From: Agrocybe praecox
Taxonomy: Eukaryota; Basidiomycota; Agaricomycetes; Agaricales; Agrocybaceae
Direction: 5' to 3'
DNA length: 64,000 bases
Assembly (NCBI GenBank): GCA_964017145.1
Contig: OZ024840.1
Location: forward strand, 372,001-436,000
Shown here: positions 1 through 26,655 of the stretch, piece after piece
How positions within the stretch are numbered: the stretch's first letter is position 1
How the letters are laid out: each line of letters opens with the position of its first letter
Made by a program: the position numbers and the translations under genes
Notes under the pieces: model-generated
Told to the model about the DNA's origin: nothing
The model's input: only the letters and a program-made list of their open reading frames with translations
The model's database searches: none

Positions 1-161
1 CCATATCGATGTTTCATTATACAGCATCCACATCGCATTATACCACATAGATCTCGTATTATACCACATCTATGTTGGATTATACCACATATAATGTCGG
101 GTTGCGCAACATACCTCGGCTATGATGCCGGGCATGCCGACAACGAATGATTACCACTTTG
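1..161. repeat. Left arm of a foldback element, with minisatellite end
   Basis: Positions 1-105 hold degenerate copies of a unit of about 21 bp built around TTATACCACAT. Positions 105-161 continue with a unique stretch containing AACATACCTCGGCTAT and ending ACCACTTTG. The reverse complement of 3822-4110 repeats the same order: TTATACCACAT units, then AACATACCTCGGCTAT, a GCCG-rich stretch and CCACTTTGATC. The two are therefore arms of one inverted repeat. The arm is cut at 161 by the element that starts at 162. It runs off the left edge of the window, so its true end is unknown. Confidence 0.75.
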
Positions 162-485
162 TAGACTCGCGACCAGTGCGTTACGGTGGTGATTACGCAA
201 GCTTGGTCATTTGTCATGATTTAGAGTTTTCCTAAGCTCCGACAGCCATCAAACGGAACTCAATCGGACTACGAAAGGGGGCATCACCACCTAACGACTG
301 GGAGTTACGGGGACGATTTAGAGGAAGGCCCCCTGCGTGACAGGGACTTAGCGAAATTTCGCGTTTTTTGACGCGAACACATTTCGTCTCGCTCACTTGG
401 CGCCTGCCTCTCATCAAACTAACACGGAATCATGTTCTAAATAATTATATTGATGTCTAAATGTAAATGTAGTATATAAAATACA

Positions 486-1116
486 TTATTTAGGTGGTAT
501 ATCATCCGGTGTACTGTACTGTTGGGATAGGGAAGGCTGATGAGGTGTCAAAGGGTTTGTGCTTCTGGAAGGTGTTGACTGATAAGAATAGGAATGCATG
601 GGTGCGTGTTTCTGGGGTGGTTTGGCTTGCATAGGCCTGATGTCTAGGCGCTTCATCATTTCTAATAGCTCATCCCCATATTTTCCGAACCATGGCCAAT
701 CTTCTCCTGTCACCTTCTCCAACTCGTTCAAGCTTTCGATCTGCCCCACGGATGCCAATGTTTCAACGGTCTCGTCCTTCAGGATAACGGAGGGGTCAAA
801 CAATGAATTTTCGAAGTCGCGTTTCCAGGCTTCCCTACGCCATTCTTGTAAGGCGGTCTTCACATCGACATTTAGTGTGCCTGTTTTGACTGCACCCTTT
901 CTAGCGGTGACGACAGGGCGAGATGGTCTCGTTTGGTTCAGGAGGATGGGCTCGCAGATGTCGCAGCAAGGAGCGGTTGGTTCTGACATATAGGTAAGCA
1001 TGCTAACTTCACTGCTGGATACGTTGGAAACTCACTAGGAGGTTTATTACCATAGATCTCTGCTAAAACCTCTCGTCGGCACATTCCTGTTTGAGCTAAA
1101 GTGTAAAGCCCTTCAT
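486..1116 (-). pseudogene. C-terminal fragment of a RecQ-type DNA helicase
   Basis: Two minus-strand exons can be joined. The upstream one (about 1116-1036) encodes a stretch around CRREVLAEIYGNKPP. A GTGAGT donor follows, then an acceptor before 982, and the terminal exon 982-486 opens with PTAPCCDIC. The CRR...L...NKPP...CCDxC arrangement is the zinc-binding region after the helicase core in basidiomycete RecQ-family proteins. It is followed by a charged helical stretch and a Pro/Ser/Gln-rich tail ending in TAA. The whole ATPase core is missing: upstream sequence reads as antisense of the next fragment. The piece lies wholly inside element E1 and is best seen as captured DNA. A degenerate resident helicase gene is the alternative. 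Confidence 0.6.
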
Positions 1117-1122
1117 CTGGAG

Positions 1123-1944
1123 ATGCCGAATCCAGAGGTACGCGATGGTTCCGAGCATGGTTTTCGTCGGATTTGCCATGATGAGCACCCCGCTGCACAC
1201 CATGTCGTAGCGCGTACCCTTTTGGTGCCTTTGGGTAAGCTGTCTCATGGAAGCAACACATCATGGGAATGGCTAGCTTCGATCTCTCCTTGTGTCGACA
1301 TGCTTCGACAACTGGCAAAGAATGTCCACGGCATGTTGGGCGCAGATCAAGGGAGTCGACACGCACCACCACAGCTATCAAAAGATATCGAAAGTCTAAT
1401 GGATTCGTTAGGCGAGCATAAAGTATACGAGATTCAGAAAGGACATACATTGGATGATGATGATCCTCCTGTAAAAGATATCATCTCGTCCGGTTTTCAC
1501 AGCCTCACAACCGGAGCAAAGAACCCCCTTCACGAGTATAACGAAGCCTTCATAAAGCTACAAAGACGACGTCAAATAACCCCTGTAAACTCAAACGAAG
1601 ATTCTATAAGTACGCAAGACATCGACCCCAACTCAGCGGAGGAAGCCAACAGACTCACAAGTGATCCAATACGTGACGGTGCCAAAACCCAGGAGTCGTT
1701 CACAGCTATGTTTCCAAGTGATGATAATCCCTTTGTTGCAGAGACGGTGGTCCAGGTTAATGGCATCGAGATGGAAGAACCGCCGACAGGTGAGCTGGAG
1801 CAGATTATTGATGATGTTGAAAAAGGGAAGGTGGATCTGATGTTCCCGGTGCTGGACGAAGAAGATGTGTCATTGGATATGGACACTGTAGCAATTGACA
1901 GCGAAAGTGACGAGGATAGTATGTACGCAAGTGACGAAGAATGA
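1123..1944 (+). pseudogene. C-terminal fragment of an unidentified basidiomycete protein, acidic tail
   Basis: A 273-codon open frame runs from ATG 1123 to TGA, and the frame is open back to 1036. The conserved-looking part includes NTSWEWLASISPCVDMLRQL, a HKVYEIQKG stretch, DDDDPPVKDIIS and NPLHEYNEAF, then QRRRQI. The tail is strongly acidic, ending SESDEDSMYASDEE. The style resembles large hypothetical basidiomycete proteins; a link to the DUF6589 group is tentative and from memory only. It looks like the end of a longer protein. It abuts the helicase fragment head to head at about 1117-1123, as expected for two independently captured pieces. The stop lies about 190 bp inside the right TIR. 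No function is proposed. Confidence 0.45.
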
Positions 1945-2144
1945 GGAAAGAGGAAACACGGCGGCGTGGGTAGACGTGGGAGCGTGCTGTAATTTACCGA
2001 ATTTTACCTAAGTTCTTTGTGACAAGGCGTGACCCTACTAAATCTCCCCGTTGCTCCCAGCCGTTACCTGGAGATGCTCGCGGCTGCTCTCGGCATAAAG
2101 CGGAGTTCGACAGGTAACGGCTGGTCACGAGCCTAACCACTTTG

Positions 2145-2318
2145 ATCTAGTTCTGTTCCTTTTTCGGCGCATCGGCAATCAATGCAAAGCTACGGCTTGT
2201 CAGTGCACACGTATCCGGCCGAGAGCGAGTCAAGGTACTTAGCGCAGTTGTATATACATGTGCGCGCTCGAGCATTACAAGCCGTGGCTCTAAATTTATA
2301 GCCGGAGCGCCGAAACAA
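2145..2318. repeat. Central core of the foldback element
   Basis: This 174-bp stretch lies between the target duplications of E1 and E2. It is itself palindromic: TTTCGGCGC near 2163 pairs with GCGCCGAAA near 2308, and TACGGCTTGT near 2191 pairs with ACAAGCCGTGG near 2268. With the outer arms it makes one long imperfect palindrome. There is no credible gene in it. Confidence 0.6.
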
Positions 2319-2829
2319 GGATCAAAGTAGACTCGCGACCAGTACGTTAGGTGGTGATTACTCATGTGTCATCCCTGATGCCTCATTGTTTGGTCTTTGT
2401 TGTGGGTTTGTTTGTGCTTCCTAACATCAAGCGGAACTCAATCGGACTGTGAAAGGAGCATCACCACCTAACGACTGGGAGCAACCGAGACGTTTTAGTA
2501 GAGGTGACTTTTTGTGACGCCAAATTAGAAAAAAAACGCGTTTTTTGCCTCGCGCGCTTTCGTCAAGTGGCCACAACTTGGCCACAACACTTCAGAAGGC
2601 TTGGAAAATTTGTTATATTGGTAGTGTATGCTAATGTAAATACATATCCAATAGATATATATGTTTGGAAACAATTTTGAAAGAGGAAAAACCAGATCTC
2701 ACTTTTTTCTTCACCTAAGTCTGCATTGCGCTTCACTTATGTCCCTGGGCCGTGAAAACACAACACCTGTCAAACATCTGTAAGCAAAGATATGCTATCT
2801 CATCCAATAAAGCTACAGCACCTACTTGT

Positions 2830-3261
2830 TCAAGTGATTCTTTGAGAAGAAAATCTCAACAAGAGGATGCCAATCGATAGCAGAGGTCGGATTTGCTGTT
2901 TCCATTGGCGCGGTTTTTGGAATGTGGGCGGGAATAAGGAGAGCATAGCAAAGTTGAGGTTTTGTCCCGGTGCAGCTGCTCCATCCACGGTAACAGTGAA
3001 CGAGTTGTTGAGAGCTGTGGTACCAGATCTAGGGGTGAGTGTAACAGTGATTTGCTTCCAGCTTATCTGACTGCCAGAAATTTGAGCTGTAGTTGATGCG
3101 AAGACTTGTCCAGAGGATGACTGAAGTCCTACAACGACGTTAGCACTGAAGCTCGAGCTGGTAGGGAACCTATAGTAGAAAGACGCAGCGTAGGTGGATC
3201 CCGCTGTCCCTTTAATGGCTTGTAGGTTGACAGATACAGACATAGTTGGTGTGAGGTACAC
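2830..3261 (-). pseudogene. Fragment of a GH51 alpha-L-arabinofuranosidase, frameshifted
   Basis: The reading frame matches the N-terminal beta-sandwich (CBM4_9-like) part of fungal GH51 alpha-L-arabinofuranosidases. Recognisable elements are ASFYYRFPTSSSF, VVGLQSSSGQV, SWKQITVTL, NSFTVTVDGAAAPGQ and FAMLSLFPPTF. Just after PPTF the frame shifts and the expected catalytic-domain entry is lost, ending in a short unrelated tail. The signal peptide and the whole catalytic barrel are absent, so no active enzyme can be made. It lies entirely within element E2 and is most simply a captured fragment of a plant-cell-wall-degrading enzyme gene. Confidence 0.7.
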
Positions 3262-3275
3262 CTCAGCAATATCTC

Positions 3276-3693
3276 TTGAAAACGTCGCAACTTGGAAGAA
3301 ACCAGTTTCTGAGCAGGGTGCCCTCCCCTCTCAATTTCTCACCACCCACTCAGGTTGCACTGCCAAACGAGCAATTGCTGATGCCCTCCATCTCGGATCC
3401 TACCCTTCAACCTATTTTGAATCTATATACTAAAGCAGGATGTTTAGTTTATGCTGAAAAAGAATTCGTGAGCCTTCGGAAATTCGACGTATACTCATCG
3501 GACTTGCCTCCGCTGGAGAAACCGACATGGAACAGGGTCTTGCACTACCATCTCCGAGGATGTTTCACTCGCTATGAGTCGAATTATTGGGGAGGATGCA
3601 GAAGACGGAGATGTAGAGTCTTCTGTTTACTCAGAAGAAGAAGAAGACGTGAGAAACGAGATATATAGCGAGGACTCAGACGCGACGTTGTAG
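3276..3693 (+). pseudogene. Unassigned coding relic with acidic end inside E2
   Basis: A 130-codon frame from 3276 includes GCLVYAEKEFVSLRKFDVYS and PPLEKPTWNRVL, which read like real protein. An overlapping frame from ATG 3574 to TAG 3693 encodes an acidic tail (GDVESSVYSEEEEDV). Switching between these two frames would need an intron or a frameshift that I could not fix. As in E1, an acidic C-terminus ends shortly before the right terminal repeat. The family is not recognised and expression is doubtful. Confidence 0.2.
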
Positions 3694-3821
3694 CAATTCA
3701 ACGGATTTTTTACAAGTTGGCCCGTGACAAGTGTGACTGTGCTAAAGTGGTTCCGTTCGTCCCAGCCGTTTCTTCGAAACTCTTTCGGGGTTTTAAAAAG
3801 AAACGGCTGGTCACGAGCCTA

Positions 3822-4110
3822 GGATCAAAGTGGCAATGAGAGTGCATCGGCACATCCGGCAGTATAGCCGAGGTATGTTTTACGACCTGATATTCGATGT
3901 GGTATAATCCGACATCTATGCGGTATAATCCAGCACCTCTTTGGTATAATTGCACATTCTTTTGTGAATTCCGACATCTATATGGTATAATCGGACATTT
4001 ATATGGTATAATCCGATGTCTATGTGGTATAATCAACTTCTTATATTGTATAATCCCACATGTGTGTCGTATAACCACCCTATATGTTGTATGAATAGAC
4101 TTGTATGTTG
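3822..4110. repeat. Right arm of the foldback element, with about 21-bp minisatellite
   Basis: After the E2 target duplication comes the inverted counterpart of the left arm (ATAGCCGAGGTATGTT at about 3871), then from about 3898 to 4110 some ten degenerate units of the form GGTATAATCCGACATCTAT. Unit length is close to 21 bp and homogeneity falls rightwards. The repeats match the left-arm minisatellite in inverted orientation. Confidence 0.75.
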
Positions 4111-16875: not shown

Positions 16876-18500
16876 ATGCCTCGCTTAACTGAAGACCCCA
16901 CGAAGGCGATTTGTCCGAACTACGAGGAAGACGAGTGGAGCCCCATAAGGCTGTCACTGATTTCGGCACATATCGGCGACATCCCTCTGACCAACGAGGG
17001 TGCTATTGATAAGTTAAAGGACGCTTGGAAGCAATCCAACGAACGTAAAATTGTGCAATGGAACGAACAAGTGCGTATCGATCAAATTGCGGAGGAGGAG
17101 GCTGCCCAGGAGGCTCGAGAGGAGGAAAGGAAAAAGCGAGAAGAGGAGGAGAAGGAGGCTGAATTAGAAAGGCGAGAGCTAGAAAAGAAGAAACCGAAGC
17201 TCAAGGCATTCGATCCTACGAAGAGGGTCGACTCATGGATTGCACCCAGACCAGCTGCGTACGCGCTGAATAGAATCCAGCAGCTCGAATACGTCGAACT
17301 CGACTATTTCACTCTTCGGGGATGTCAAGAAGCCCAGGCAGAACACGGAAAAGCCACGTTGCAAGACACCTTCACGCTCGCCAAAAATGATGACGGCGTT
17401 GTTGCTCTGCGTCCTTCCTCGTCATTGAAGGCATCCAAGAACGTTAGGATGGACCACCTGCTGGAATGGGAAGAGTTGTCCGTGGCCAAAAACTTGATGG
17501 TTCACTATATGTCAGCATCTGGGGTATGGCCACAAGAACATGTTACATCCTTGGCCGCCTTTTTTCTGCGATTGGAGAGTCACCCTATACGGTTGCGGCC
17601 CCACGGAAATCAGACAGTCTTACTTTACCAAAATAGAGTCAGGCGAGAGTGGTTTGACGCATTGAAACGGGGCGAAGGATTCAACATCCAGTTAATCAAT
17701 GATGATCTGATGGATAAGCTACATACCGAAGTTGGGGATGGTGTCCGAGAGAAATCTCTTCGCGAGGTACGCTATTTTATATTTTATGTTACACAATTTG
17801 CGTACAAATTGCTGACGAAATATCTTCCTTTTTTCTTTTCGTTTATGAACACTTTATTGCTATGCGATGCTACATTGAATTGTCATATCGTCCAATTACT
17901 ATGCTATGCTACTGCTATGCTGCGCTATTCCACCGCTAGATGAATGAAGCCACATCTTCTTTCCAAGCTATGCTGGACCTGAGATCACCTCGCAAACGAT
18001 CGCGAAATTTCTCAAGGAATTTTGAGGGAGCATCAAGATCTCCGTCCCCATCTTACGGGCAAAGTTCAAGGAAGAGAGCTAGGTCACGATCACCTGCCAG
18101 ATTCCAGTCAAAGCAAAACCGCAAGAATCGTGATCCCCGTCGAGCTAATCAACTCAAGTCCCAATTTCAATCTGGGGATAGAGACAGTGACGAAGCGGGT
18201 TTTACCCAGGGTGCAGACTTACGAGCGACGTCAAGAGTCTGTGCCGTATGCCTTGGACGTCACGACCACGATTTCACCAAATGCAGCTCAGCGAAACTAT
18301 GGGATGGCTCGGAATCGAAAGGCAAAGCTCACAGAAACGACCATGGGAGATTGGTTGGCAAGGAGGGATCAACCCTGTGCTTCGATTGGCAATTGCCAAG
18401 AGGATGTCAAAGCTCGTCCCATCCCGAACGCCATCGATGCTCGGGTTGCGCAAAATCCGATCATGGAGCCCAGACGTGCCCTCGAGCAGAGAAGGCTTGA
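16876..18500 (+). CDS. Ngaro-like Gag protein with zinc fingers
   Basis: Two exons, 16876-17766 and 17940-18500, joined over a 173-nt intron (GTACGC donor, CCGCTAG acceptor, frame kept). An in-frame ATG at 16756 lies inside repeat A1; 16876 (MPRLTEDPTKAICPNYEEDE) is preferred because it follows the repeat. The N-terminal third contains a charged coiled coil (EEEAAQEAREEERKKREEEE), followed by a domain typical of basidiomycete YR-element Gags (YFTLRGCQEAQ, SASGVWPQEHV, RVRREWFDALKRGEGFNI). The C-terminal exon is basic and Ser/Arg-rich, then has CAVCLGRHDHDFTKC and a second Cys/His cluster (CSGCAKSDHGAQTC), likely nucleic-acid-binding knuckles. The intron could regulate the Gag product or mimic retention; transcripts are needed to decide. 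Confidence 0.75.
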
Positions 18501-20475
18501 AGGTCTTACACCATACAAGCCAGAGGTGTGGGAACATGAGCTCGTCAAGCATGGACTGGTCCGCAAGTATCCTAATCTTGCTCGAGACTTGGTTCGTGGA
18601 TTCGACGTGGGCATACCCAATATTTCCAAGACCTACATCCCACCCAATCATCCATCTCTTATTCAGCTGTCTGATATTCACGATGCCATCACACAAAAGG
18701 AGTTTGACGCACACCGTTATATTGGTCCTTTTACCCAATCTGAGCTGGAAGCCCTTATCGGACCTTTTCATTGTTCTCCTTTATCGCTGGTACCTAAACC
18801 CGGAAAGCCAGGAAAATACAGACCTGTTCACGACTTCTCAAGCCCTCATTCTTCTCTCGACACTCCTTCCATTAATTCATATATTAATATCGATAATTTC
18901 CCATGTACTTGGGGTACATTTCACGCAGTATCGCTTCTCATCTTTAGGCTACCTCCAGGATCTCGCGCATCCATCAGAGATGTCGCTGAGGCTTATCGAA
19001 CCATTCCTGTTTTACCCGAGCAATGGGCAGGGCTGGTGGTTCGACTCAAGGGTGATGACAGATTCGCAGTCAATACTAATAACAATTTCGGCCTACGATC
19101 AGCAGGAGGGGTATATGGTCTGCTTGCAGATGCAGGTGCTGATATTTTTAGAGCTAACGGTATTGGTCCTCTCTCTAAATGGGTCGATGACCATATTTTC
19201 TTTCAAATTCTTGCTATACGCCTCCATGATTATAATGAACAACGGAAATTGTGGCGAAAGGAGATACAACTTAATAGCGGGTGCATTCAAGAGGGCAGTA
19301 GAGTATGGTATCAAGGGAAAATCATGCCGGATGGCTTTTATGAGGAGTTTGACGAAGATATGGGCTACACACTGCAGGATTTTTCGACCTTGGACTCTCT
19401 GCAGAGTGTGGATGGGGAAACTTATAGCTATGGTGACGAAGAAATCAACAGATTATCTGACAGCCTGGGAATCAAATGGGAAGACAGCAAAACCACCCCC
19501 TTCAGCTTTATTGTCACTTATTTGGGTTTTGTATGGAACTTACAGACTCGTACGGTCGCTGTTCCAGATGATAAGCGAGCCAAGTATCTCGCTGCCATCG
19601 AAGCTTGGGAGTTGCAACCCACTCACACGCTTCTCGAAGTTCAAAAACTACACGGAAAGCTTTTACACACAACTCTCATCATTCCGGAAGGACGAGCGTA
19701 CCTCACAAACCTGGAGACCATGCTCAGTACCTTCCACGGTCGTCCTTTCGTTCCGCATACCCCACCCTGAAACACTGTTGGAGATCTGCAGTGGTGGAAA
19801 ACCCTCCTCCAATCCGACCCCTTATCAAGACTCATCCCAGGACCCATACCAGTTATCGATGTCAAGGCATATTCAGATGCAAGCTCAGGCTTTGGCATTG
19901 CCATCACGATTGGATCAAAATGGCGAGCATGGATCCTCACCCCAGGCTGGCAATCCGAAGGGCGGGATATCGGTTGGGCTGAAGCCATGGGATTCGAGTT
20001 CCTCGTCCACGCTCTGTGCAGGAATGCCACACCTGGCACCCATTTTAGGGTTTACGGCGACAACCAAGGAGTCGTCGAAGGATGGTGGAATGGACGCAGT
20101 CGGAACCGTCACACCAACGATGTATTCCGACGCATTCACAAATTATCAAGAAGATATGATTGCAGCATACTTACGAGATATGTACCCAGCGCCCAAAACC
20201 CATCAGATGGTCCATCGCGAGGAATTTACCCACCCATCGACCTCCTCCTTGATAACATACCCATTCCTCTCGAGGCACAACCCTACATCGTCGACTTTGA
20301 CAACCCCATCCATGGCAAGCACCGACCTGCTAGTTGCAATCTCAACAGAATACCTGAACGGTTTGAATCGGAAGAAAGGGCCCGAGAACAACATTCCTCT
20401 GCCCACCGAAACACCCAGCTGCAGCACACTCGACACACAGAGACCAATACTCTCGTTGCGCGCACCCACAACTAA
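18463..20475 (+). pseudogene. Ngaro-like reverse transcriptase-RNase H, interrupted by one TGA
   Basis: The frame is open from 18022 and overlaps gag; a plausible start is ATG 18463. The RT domain has SLVPKPGKPGKYRPVHDFSS, the catalytic Asp in RDVAEAYRTIPVLPEQWAG, GLRSAGGVYGLLADAGADIF and the VDD active site in SKWVDDHIFF, then the thumb-like PTHTLLEVQKLHGKL. The RNase H domain follows in the same frame: AYSDASSGFGIAI, WAEAMGFEFLVHAL, YGDNQGVVEGWWNGRSRN and a final SDGPSRG. The two are separated by a single in-frame TGA at 19768-19770. A C-to-T change of an Arg CGA would explain it; readthrough is possible but unproven. Apart from that stop the catalytic residues look intact. Confidence 0.8.
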
Positions 20476-21664
20476 ATCTGGAAAACAACGGGACATGGAA
20501 TTACCCCACTCTACGGTCGCACGACGTCGTCCAGCTCCTTATCCTCATAATTTACGCCCCCAAGATTCAGAGCTACGTCCACATTGCCATGCTCGTGATC
20601 GCCTGCGACTCTGGCGACCCCGCTCTTCCTTTTCAGACCCAGAGATTCCGGGTCTTAGTCAGAACGACGTTGAACGTGTTGTTTCAGTAATTTCTCATGC
20701 TTGGGAAGAGGACACACACGCTTCATATGGTGCTGGGCTACTTATTTTCCACGTTTTTTGCGATTCACGTAGTATTGCTGAAAAGGATAGGGCTCCTGCA
20801 TCCCAGGACCTTCTCTCCACCTTCGTTTCGAGCCTGGCGGCATCATATTCAGGGAAGACCATTTCAAATTATTTGTATGGTGTTCGTGCGTGGCATATCC
20901 TCCACAGGATCTCATGGATGATGAATCGGGCAGAGATGGAAACCTTGCTCCGAGCAGCAGACAAGCTTTCCCCGCCCTCGTCAAAGCGTAAGAAAAGGTG
21001 CCCTTATACGGTTGATTTTATGGTGGCACTACTACAGCACCTCGATCTCACAATTCCCTTAGACGCAGCGGTATTTGCCTGCTTAACCACTTGCTTCTAT
21101 GCATCTGCTCGTGTTGGGGAATTTACAGTATCGAAACTAGATGGCTTCAATGCTTCCCATCACGTCACACGCAACAACTTATCCCATGACCAAGATAGAA
21201 ACGGTCTTCGAGTTACGGTGCTCCATCTCCCACGATCCAAAACCACGCTAGAGGGGGAGGATGTATTTTGGGCAAAGCAAAAGGGCCCCACCGACCCTGA
21301 CGAGGCTCTTGAAAACCATCTCCGAGTTAATGAGCCCCCTGCCAATGGCCACCTTTTCGCTTACCGTAAGAGCACTGGTGGTCATCAGCCTCTTACCAAG
21401 AGGAAATTCATCGAACGGTTAGCGAAAGCAGCGCGCGCAGCAAAACTGGATCCCTTACAAGGCCATGGTATACGAATTGGCTCTGTCCTCGAATACTTGC
21501 TACGCGGCATGCCTTTCGATGTCATGAAGACAAAAGGAAGATGGGCAAGCGACGCGTTTTTGGCATACTTAAGAAAGCATGCTCTCATACTCGCCCCGTA
21601 CATTCAGGATGACACATCCTTTTATGACAAATTCATCCGCTACACTATGCCACCTGTGCGATAA
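20476..21664 (+). CDS. Ngaro-like tyrosine recombinase
   Basis: Encoded in frame 2, whose open frame extends back to 18248 under the RT. The recombinase part is about 340 residues ending in PPVR and TAA/TGA-proximal text at 21664. N-terminal SAM-like helices (GKTISNYLYGVRAWHILHRI) precede the catalytic domain. All four catalytic residues can be placed: the first Arg in YASARVGEF, the His-x-x-Arg box in GHGIRIGSVLEYLL, and the Tyr in SDAFLAYLRKH. The protein would integrate a circular cDNA by site-specific recombination without target duplication. The start is unclear: it may be translated as a fusion after frameshifting from the RNase H frame or from a spliced RNA. Confidence 0.85.
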
Positions 21665-24299: not shown

Positions 24300-24433
24300 T
24301 AGACTCGCGACTAGTAGTTCCTTAATCGGTGGTTTGTATTTCTTTGTCCTTCCGCAAACGGCTTTTGTTTGTAGTTGTTGTGGCTTTGTTATGGCGACTA
24401 CCATCAGGCGAGACACAGTTGGTCACGAGCCTA
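24300..24433. mobile_element. 134-bp MITE (E3) of the E1/E2 family
   Basis: The left end is TAGACTCGCGACTAG and the reverse complement of the right end is TAGGCTCGTGACCAA, matching the termini of E1 and E2. The flanks CGCTTACTC and CGCTTATGT share six of nine bases, an eroded target duplication. The insertion is absent from the equivalent place in duplication unit 1 (about 16610-16620), so it arrived after the tandem duplication or was lost from unit 1. Confidence 0.7.
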
Positions 24434-24540: not shown

Positions 24541-26655
24541 CTACTTTTCGTCCTAATTTCATCCTTACATTCCTACTTCCATCCATGCCCGTGGCTATAG
24601 CCGATTGAGTAATTGGAGTATATCAGAATTTACCTTGCGATTCAGTTGTCCAAAATTGCAATATACAAGACAAGTCTTCTGAAGAATGAATGACTCGCTA
24701 CTCGTGCTCACGCCCAATTTATGGAATGGGATGTTGCTTAGGAGCGCTGCCTGGAAAACCAAATGCAACATATTGCATGAATGTATGTGAATGTATAGGC
24801 TCGAAACCAGCCGTTATAGTGGTACATAATATTTTCTCCCTCATTTTTTCCCGGTTCTTTTCCGCACCCAAGGAGACTGGTATCGAGTCTAGTGAATGTA
24901 TGTGGATGGCTGATGGATCATGGACGAACGCAAGAGCGGAAGGACAAGATTTTTTCTTTCTTTTTCGCCTCTTATGTATGTCTTACTAATATCCCTCTCT
25001 TGCGCCACCATTACCACCATTACCCATTACCCAAAACGCAGCGTACGGAATATGCCATGGCATTACATAACTTCCTCTGTGCTTATAACCCTCCCATGCG
25101 CGATGCTCGGGCATATGAGGAAGTGGACGTTTGGAGTGTATAACAGAGAGCTTCATCTCCCTCCTTTTGATTCCTTCCTCTCCTTTCTCGTCTCATCTTT
25201 CCCTCCCTCCCCTTTCTTTAGCTTATGTATCGAACCTCTGAATCACAGCCCAACAGGTCCTACACTGTCCCATACTGTTTATTCTTATCAAGGCCCCGCT
25301 TCCGGCCCTAATAGCTGCTCACTCATCCCTTTGGACGTTCTCTTCAAGTTGTTCATCTCGATCGTATCTTCTCCCCTATAATCCTTTCACCCTCTCTGCG
25401 GCACATCCTTCATTGGCCTCCCCCTCATCCATGAAACATGCGCATGAAGCTTTAAAGTATGAAGTGTCCGCGTCAATGTTTCAATTCGGAGTCAACATGG
25501 CCTCGCCAGGTCATCAATCTGCCTTTTTCTTCTCTTCGCCTTTTATCACTTCCTTTCTTCGGCTTAGATATTGACATGTACACATCGATGAACGTCTCTC
25601 GGCGGTTCCACTCCCATCGTCGACGCCGTTCGTCCCTCAATACTTGCCCGTTTGTGTTCGATTGACATACATGTGCCCTTGGACTTTCATGTTTGTCTTT
25701 CGTACAGAATCCATCCTCTTCGTGCAAACGTGGCTCCCCTTTCTCTTTTGCGTCGTCACTGTGTTGGATCTTCCGTCATCTTCTGGGTGTGTGCACCCCC
25801 TCCTCTCTCCTCTCCCCTCTCCATGCTATGCGTAATATCCCCGGGAAATAGACCAGCAAACATTCCACGTGTAATTCGCCTCCATGTTCCCTCATGAATA
25901 CAAGGGAACGTGCTTGAACTACATATGATACTAGTTAGTTATGGGCCAAGCAGAGCTGGCAAAGACGAGACTCCGTACGACGGAGTCTCAAAGATATGAG
26001 CAGAGTTTATAGTACACGAAAGTCCTTTTCAATTTGTTTTAAATCGTCCCAAGAGCGCAAGTGCAAGCAAGTTGTAGTTTTATGACCTATGTTATAACCA
26101 AAGAGTGTAAAAGGGTGATGCGCGGAGAGGCTTACTCATCCGATCAGTTTGGGTTTGTTAAACACAATAAATTGGACTGCCCACTTGGGAAGCCGAGCAT
26201 TTGACAGATCACTTGACACTCGACTTGACAGGCTCCGCCTGAATCGGACTTGACAAGCAAATGTCCGCCGTGTTAGCTCGAGTCGAATTAAATTATTTAA
26301 GCTTTCATTGGACAACTTGCGAGATGAAATACACTCATGGGACATTGGATGGTTATCTTACTGATTTAGTTAGTTTAACTCGTACTATAGTCGATCGAAG
26401 CAGCGCAAGCTGGGCTTCTATTTCAAATAAGTTGTATTTCTGCTCGGAGCCCCAAGAATGAGGGTGAAGAATGAATGACACATCCGAGCTTCTAATCATA
26501 ATTTTGTCTGTCAGAAATTGTATTTGTTCTCAAATTTCCCCAAAAATAGTTCAATTCAAGGTGATCCTATTTATTTGTGGACCAGTAAAAGACAGCAACA
26601 ACTGTATGATGCTTCATCACAATTACCAACTTATATCCTTCATCCTCGAGTTTCA
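24541..26655. other. Intergenic, partly pyrimidine-rich
   Basis: The plus strand is C/T-rich from about 25140 to 25850 and shares blocks with 13480-14100. A perfect hairpin, GAGACTCCGT/ACGGAGTCTC with a 3-base loop, lies at 25967-25989; with no gene ending near it, a terminator role is unlikely. No gene is supported. Confidence 0.45.

What the first reader, a model, noticed from the sequence alone, without database searches (positions are those of the whole stretch)
162..3821. Two sister transposons carrying different host gene fragments (Pack-MULE-like) in a mushroom genome
E1 (162-2135) and E2 (2328-3821) have the same termini (TAGACTCGCGACCAG / TAGGCTCGTGACCAG reversed), each a perfect 9-bp target duplication (ACCACTTTG; GGATCAAAG) and similar subterminal sequences, but unrelated interiors. 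E1 holds a RecQ helicase tail and a second coding fragment head to head; E2 holds part of a GH51 arabinofuranosidase. Same ends with different captured genes is the hallmark of Pack-MULEs, which are described mainly in plants. The superfamily is inferred from the 9-bp duplication only.
Basis: partly seen in the sequence, partly recalled or inferred. Interest (0 to 1): 0.85.

Follow-up and report, generated by a model that had tools for sequence, protein, structure and literature searches.

The report
Mushroom transposons, one carrying gene fragment
Two neighbouring jumping-DNA pieces in a mushroom genome are shortened relatives of larger mobile elements that encode their own helicase and probable transposase; only one of the two has swallowed a piece of a host gene, so the 'captured genes' idea is half right.

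Summary
Structure confirmed: E1 (162-2135) and E2 (2328-3821) have the stated 15-bp ends and perfect 9-bp duplications. Of 43 elements examined with these ends in the same 59-Mb genome, 31 have a perfect and 3 a one-mismatch 9-bp duplication.

Interpretation half right. E1 holds no captured genes: two full-length copies with the same ends (6391 and 6491 bp) carry a RecQ-family helicase and a DUF6589 protein, and E1's two fragments are the 3' ends of these genes in the same order and orientation. E1 is an internally deleted copy. E2 derives from a second lineage and does carry 373 bp of a GH51 arabinofuranosidase gene, 92% identical to an intron-bearing gene on another contig. The piece includes 53 bp of intron, so capture was at DNA level; two sister copies keep transposon sequence there.

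By sequence the family is not Mutator. DUF6589 models as a DDE-type transposase resembling Hermes and P element. The 9-bp duplication plus helicase fits AcademH as cited in print; kinship to Academ transposases could not be tested. A second copy (L075) carries about 1.5 kb matching two other places on its own contig.

The parts
162..2135 (+). E1: internally deleted, non-autonomous copy of the RecQ/DUF6589 transposon (L072-type ends)
   Evidence: exact 15-bp ends and 9-bp duplication; remnants of both element genes in the order of L072
153..161 (.). target site duplication of E1, left (ACCACTTTG)
2136..2144 (.). target site duplication of E1, right
162..367 (+). E1 left terminal/subterminal region with inverted repeat
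   Evidence: 90% to L072 over 206 bp; hairpin z -2.05
603..1249 (-). remnant of the element's own RecQ helicase gene (3' part)
   Evidence: 61% over 74 aa and 69% over 127 aa to L072 helicase pieces; BLASTP E 8e-66
1243..1941 (+). remnant of the element's own DUF6589 (putative transposase) gene (3' part)
   Evidence: 49-50% aa to L072; Pfam DUF6589 3.7e-08
2008..2135 (-). E1 right terminal region with hairpin
   Evidence: 88% to L072; hairpin z -3.5
2328..3821 (+). E2: internally deleted, non-autonomous copy (L101-type lineage) carrying a captured GH51 gene fragment
   Evidence: exact ends and 9-bp duplication; left end 95% over 250 bp and right part 80% over 394 columns to L101
2319..2327 (.). 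target site duplication of E2, left (GGATCAAAG)
3822..3830 (.). target site duplication of E2, right
2900..3272 (-). captured piece of a GH51 alpha-L-arabinofuranosidase gene (part of an exon plus 53 bp of the preceding intron)
   Evidence: 344 of 373 columns identical to C12:1504605-1504975; parent verified as GH51 by solved structure 6zps, E 1.9e-102
3220..3272 (-). intron part within the captured piece
   Evidence: 8 differences in 53 positions to the parent intron; the parent splice joint aligns without gap to 6zps
3553..3687 (+). remnant of the DUF6589 gene's acidic C-terminal tail
   Evidence: 55% over 49 columns to L101
3705..3821 (-). E2 right terminal region with hairpin
   Evidence: 92-94% to L091 and L097 over 117 bp; hairpin z -4.8
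24796..24891 (+). 96-bp miniature copy of the same family, perfect duplication GTGAATGTA
24300..24433 (+). 134-bp miniature copy, decayed duplication (3 mismatches in 9)

Best explanation
The locus holds two non-autonomous members of one cut-and-paste DNA transposon family. Its full-length members (6.4-6.5 kb) encode a RecQ-family helicase and a DUF6589 protein, read outwards from a shared centre, between 15-bp inverted ends with subterminal inverted repeats. DUF6589 is most likely the DDE-type transposase, and insertion makes a 9-bp duplication. Shown by comparison: E1 is an internally deleted form that keeps the 3' ends of both genes; E2 is a deletion derivative of a second lineage in which about 370 bp, of which 228 bp is DUF6589 remnant in a sister copy, was replaced by 373 bp of a GH51 gene, intron sequence included. 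Inferred: the replacement happened during interrupted gap repair after excision, when the repairing strand switched template to the GH51 locus, with the element's helicase possibly affecting this repair.
Against: No transposition was observed. No full-length copy of E1's own sub-lineage was read: E1's remnants are only 49-69% identical in protein to L072, and a candidate near C12:691804 could not be fetched. The GH51 fragment occurs in one element only, so movement after capture is not shown. I see no clear microhomology at the E2 junctions. In sister L073 the first 149 bp of the replaced stretch match neither full-length copy. The multi-copy interiors tested gave no host parent, so capture is not the rule. 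Foldseek alone supports the DDE fold weakly (best E 0.008, none at 0.001), and the third catalytic residue was not located by superposition.
Confidence: 0.87

Rival explanations
1. One reading: both elements are Pack-MULEs that captured host genes (RecQ and a second gene in E1, GH51 in E2).
For: 9-bp duplication, shared ends with different interiors, and a GH51 parent in the genome.
Against: E1's fragments are collinear with the genes of full-length copies having the same ends. No Mutator-transposase domain in the tested L072 and L101 ORFs or in 38 DUF6589 homologues.
Confidence: 0.03
2. The GH51 piece entered E2 by ordinary double-strand-break repair inside the inserted element, with transposition playing no part.
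For: Only one element carries the piece; the replaced and replacing stretches are of similar length; no second copy shows movement after capture.
Against: A second family member (L075) also carries non-family DNA from two places inside one 9-bp duplication with one mismatch, which favours a process tied to the element.
Confidence: 0.25
3. The family belongs to KolobokH, a fungal lineage whose members carry RecQ.
For: [quoted passage not shown]
Against: Kolobok makes 4-bp TTAA duplications (recalled, not from a call); the 34 accepted duplications here are 9 bp. The helicase is a separate gene on the other strand.
Confidence: 0.05

Closest known systems
AcademH (Academ superfamily DNA transposons encoding a helicase; Kojima 2020, known to me here only from citations; the paper is not held)
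   Same: 9 or 10 bp duplications and a helicase in the element (passage of PMC10045372); reported in Basidiomycota and other fungi (passage of PMC10799480)
   Different: Kinship of DUF6589 to the Academ transposase is untested; capture of host gene fragments by AcademH was not seen in the passages and listings I looked at
Pack-MULE / Pack-TYPE elements of plants
   Same: E2: non-autonomous element with intact ends and duplication that carries a host gene fragment, intron sequence included
   Different: Different transposase family by sequence; one identified gene fragment among the tested interiors; E1 carries none
Transduplication of histone H3 by hAT elements in Dothideomycete fungi (PMC3538342, PMC6710886; passages)
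   Same: A fungal DNA transposon carrying host-derived sequence between its ends
   Different: Ascomycetes, hAT transposase, H3 copies at high number, described as a captured transcript in PMC6710886; here a basidiomycete, a DNA-level capture, a single copy
Helitrons of Pleurotus ostreatus (PMC4289320; abstract and passages)
   Same: Mushroom transposons with a helicase, gene capture discussed; the authors saw no P. ostreatus gene fragments in intact elements
   Different: Rolling-circle, no target duplication, RepHel/PIF1-like helicase
Hermes (hAT), P element, Transib/RAG1 transposases
   Different: No sequence match to solved structures; 9-bp rather than 8-bp duplications (8 bp usual for hAT, passage; for P recalled)

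Membership tests
MULE / Pack-MULE | 8-11 bp target duplication (PMC6446971 passage) | tested here: met
   31 of 43 perfect 9-bp, 3 more with one mismatch
MULE / Pack-MULE | MULE-type transposase in the full-length partner | tested here: not met
MULE / Pack-MULE | host gene fragments between the ends | tested here: inconclusive
   E2 met; E1 not met
Pack-TYPE element (functional class), E2 only | element ends and duplication, no intact transposase gene, host gene fragment with a parent in the genome | tested here: met
AcademH | 9 or 10 bp target duplication | tested here: met
AcademH | encodes a helicase | tested here: met
   RecQ family in L072 and L101
AcademH | Academ-type DDE transposase | not testable with these tools
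   No Academ transposase sequence at hand; the paper is not held. DUF6589 has a DDE-like modelled fold
KolobokH | TTAA duplication (recalled) | tested here: not met
   34 accepted duplications, all 9 bp
hAT / P element | 8-bp duplication (hAT: passage; P: recalled) | tested here: not met
   9 bp in 34 of 43
hAT / P element | RNase H-like transposase core with helical insertion | tested here: inconclusive
Helitron | no target duplication (PMC4289320 passage) | tested here: not met
   9-bp duplications

The most novel reading that the evidence does not exclude
DUF6589, a Pfam family of unknown function in mushroom-forming fungi, is the DDE transposase of a transposon lineage that travels with a RecQ helicase. 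This lineage repeatedly swallows host DNA (a GH51 exon/intron in E2, about 1.5 kb from two other places on the same contig in L075) because RecQ-assisted gap repair switches templates: a Pack-type system in basidiomycetes unrelated by sequence to Mutator.
Probability: 0.3. Interest if true: 0.72.

Novelty: new variant of a known kind. Interest (0 to 1): 0.56.

Why it matters
It gives DUF6589 a likely role (transposase). The family was found in 549 proteins in one capped search (best 120 listed; the named ones are mushroom-forming fungi as far as I know the names), and the term is in none of the held papers. It gives an intron-marked case of gene-fragment capture by a helicase-bearing DNA transposon in a mushroom, with parent gene, sister copies without the capture, and full-length partners in one genome. 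That makes the question whether the element's helicase influences capture directly testable. It also warns that two coding fragments between shared ends need not be captured host genes.

Tried and rejected
Captured RecQ in E1: rejected. Frameshift in the GH51 parent: the apparent break is an intron. C13:2451811 as host parent of the L091/L097 interiors: rejected, it is a fragment between two other dispersed repeats. Extra 660 bp in L064: another dispersed repeat. Multi-copy interiors L077, L083, L068: by comparing coordinates I place all listed matches in copies of the family (at listed ends, or near-full-length copies that include subterminal sequence); no host parent found, but only best candidates are scored. 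Pfam on non-autonomous copies: 9 ORFs, one weak match below its cut-off (0.015), otherwise none; 44 further ORFs from 10 copies, 0 matches at E 0.01; one ORF of L087, one repeated and one of the C13 mosaic, none. Target-site motif in 34 empty sites: no strong preference, information at most 0.28 bit per position. L113 has exact ends but no duplication. Solved-structure sequence search with DUF6589: best E 0.072, unrelated. Hairpins at the left ends and in the 134-bp miniature copy stand out little or not at all from shuffles (z -2.05, -1.41, +0.84). Rfam on the window: none. Not tested against the genome: interiors of L089/L092/L096/L098, L093, L099, L086, L065, L070 and L088, and 14 of the 17 loci, which I did not get to see.

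Literature: DUF6589, 0 papers; RecQ helicase, transposon, basidiomycete and terminal inverted repeats, 1 (passages); AcademH, 7 listed (passages of four); Pack-MULE with fungi, 51 papers, 20 listed (passages of four); Pack-TYPE with transposons and fungal, 2, one looked at by passages, a reference-list hit only; Pack-MULE with mushroom, 1, listing only; transduplication with basidiomycete and DNA transposon, 4, listing only; Academ with transposon and gene capture, 108, ten listed, uninformative because the term also matches 'academic'. Subscription papers are mostly not held.
Full report
OBSERVATION. Both left ends are exact copies of TAGACTCGCGACCAG and both right ends exact copies of TAGGCTCGTGACCAG. 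E1 is flanked by ACCACTTTG and E2 by GGATCAAAG, each perfect and 9 bp. The window is C1:372001-436000 of a 59.17-Mb assembly in 347 contigs. No species name is given; the best named homologues are from Agrocybe pediades (59% for the transposase candidate; 44% for a window gene), so an agaric is inferred.

THE FAMILY. In the whole genome the left 15-mer has 71 exact places (counted); with up to 2 mismatches 284 against 79 for the reversed control. The right 15-mer with up to one mismatch has 133 places against 4. I combined 191 listed ends (of the 133 right-end places 100 were listed); 64 nearest inverted pairs lie within 12 kb, some of them nested or false. I examined 43 elements: 40 loci, plus L101, L113 and one copy read from L105. 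Of these, 31 have a perfect 9-bp duplication, 3 have one mismatch, and 9 have none worth the name; no 10-mer is perfect. Re-pairing flanks between elements gives 0 perfect and 0.024 near-perfect on average. Elements with a duplication range from 112 to 6491 bp. Both ends carry subterminal inverted repeats; as hairpins the right-end ones stand out from shuffles (z -3.5 and -4.8), the left-end ones much less (z -2.05 and -1.41). Two end lineages can be told apart in the ten copies aligned: at the right end E2, L101 and L073 share one type, E1, L072 and the others a second (left ends).

FULL-LENGTH COPIES. L072 (C2:3510429-3516819, 6391 bp) and L101 (C9:444910-451400, 6491 bp) have the same ends and perfect duplications. 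Read from left end to right end, a helicase gene runs leftwards from the middle and a DUF6589 gene runs rightwards, so both 3' ends lie near the element ends. The helicase is RecQ-family (recQ_fam 1.3e-25 in L072 and 6e-25 in L101, below the family's cut-off, as single ORF pieces were scored; best solved match WRN, 3.7e-16). The other protein is DUF6589, PF20231, function unknown. The reading frames are interrupted by apparent introns; I did not prove that the genes are intact. L087 is a 4514-bp rearranged copy, 99.5% identical to L072 over 1826 bp. The genome has 28 listed DUF6589 matches (a lower bound), which I group into 13 places, E1 among them; the 14 control genomes have none.

E1. E1 442-1088 encodes, on the minus strand, the helicase C-terminal part (61% over 74 and 69% over 127 residues of the two L072 pieces). 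E1 1082-1780 encodes, on the plus strand, the DUF6589 C-terminal part (49%) (BLASTP 8e-66 and 3e-63). Shuffled E1 gave 0 of 20 matches. Order, strand and distance to the ends are those of L072, with the middle missing. E1 is therefore a deletion derivative. L088 (1307 bp) is 98% identical to E1 outside a different internal gap, and its gap is filled by sequence that matches L099 over 79 bp and reads in one frame like the tyrosine- and proline-rich helicase tail (my reading). Independent deletions thus occurred in this lineage.

E2. The left 250 bp (95%) and the right 380 bp (80% over 394 columns) match L101. The right part includes the acidic DUF6589 tail (55% over 49 columns). E2 573-945 is 92% identical to C12:1504605-1504975; a paralogue at C12:1517323 is 68% identical. 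Spliced by eye, the C12 gene aligns without gaps over 244 residues to MgGH51 (6zps, E 1.9e-102), which fixes the introns in that part. The captured piece begins inside one intron (53 bp) and ends inside the next exon; differences are 8 of 53 in the intron and 4, 6 and 10 of 106 at the three codon positions, besides two single-base insertions in E2. The source was therefore DNA, not a spliced transcript. In the sisters L073 and C12:2605335, both with perfect duplications, DUF6589 remnant begins at element position 732 and 758 (48% over 229 and 43% over 171 columns to L101). The stretch that E2 lacks is about L073 583-959, so 228 of its 377 bp is DUF6589 remnant and the first 149 bp match neither full-length copy. 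E2 is thus the derived state. The replaced and replacing stretches are about equally long. No family end (up to 3 mismatches) lies within the 3.8 kb read around the parent gene.

HOW OFTEN. I ran seven interior stretches against the genome. E2 found its GH51 parent. L077, L083 and L068 found only what I place, by coordinates, in family copies. L091 led to a repeat mosaic. The L064 insert is another repeat. L075 (1809 bp, duplication with one mismatch) contains 493 bp matching C3:1697144-1697648 at 94% and about 1 kb matching C3:1705034-1706011 at 91-98%, about 23 and 30 kb beyond its end on the same contig, with no family end of up to one mismatch listed there (5, 9). I could not read those places, so whether they are genes, and which copy is the source, is unknown. 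Pfam on 54 ORFs of non-autonomous copies found nothing above a cut-off. Capture is therefore real in E2 but, on this evidence, uncommon.

PLACE AMONG KNOWN SYSTEMS. A passage in PMC10045372 states that AcademH makes 9 or 10 bp duplications and ties this to its helicase; the AcademH paper itself is not held and I saw only its title in reference lists. The two testable features fit; the transposase kinship is untested, so I call it AcademH-like. KolobokH also has RecQ (passage), but its 4-bp duplication (recalled) does not fit. Gene capture by fungal DNA transposons is in print for hAT elements in Dothideomycetes (passages), and P. ostreatus Helitrons were found without host fragments. I found no report of capture by an AcademH-like element in the searches listed under Tried and rejected.

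MECHANISM. Shown: shared ends, 9-bp duplications, internal deletions, replacement of a stretch by unspliced host DNA. Inferred: deletions and the capture come from interrupted gap repair after excision with a template switch. Direct break repair without transposition is the main rival (0.25). A role for RecQ is speculation.

Noticed in passing
window 37-3950: Without E1 and E2 the flanks form one imperfect palindrome of about 430 bp (65% over 452 columns) with 21-bp repeats beside and in its arms. By my arithmetic the two elements inserted at mirror-equivalent positions, offset by about 4 bp.
   Followed up: partly
window 24796-24891 and 24300-24433: Two miniature copies of the same family; the first has a perfect 9-bp duplication GTGAATGTA, the second a decayed one.
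   Followed up: yes
L075 201-2009 (C3:1672751-1674559): Element made mostly of DNA matching two places about 23 and 30 kb away on the same contig, with a second right end inside; a second host-DNA capture candidate.
   Followed up: partly
L064 (C1:882479-884513): Right end split by 660 bp of another dispersed repeat.
   Followed up: no
C10:3519189-3528139: An L068-type copy split by a large insertion of about 7.4 kb.
   Followed up: no
L113 (C10:1325668-1328653): Exact left and right ends but no duplication, with internal inverted copies of end sequence: possibly a chimera of two insertions.
   Followed up: no
window 18248-21664: A 1138-codon ORF without a Pfam match at E 0.001.
   Followed up: no
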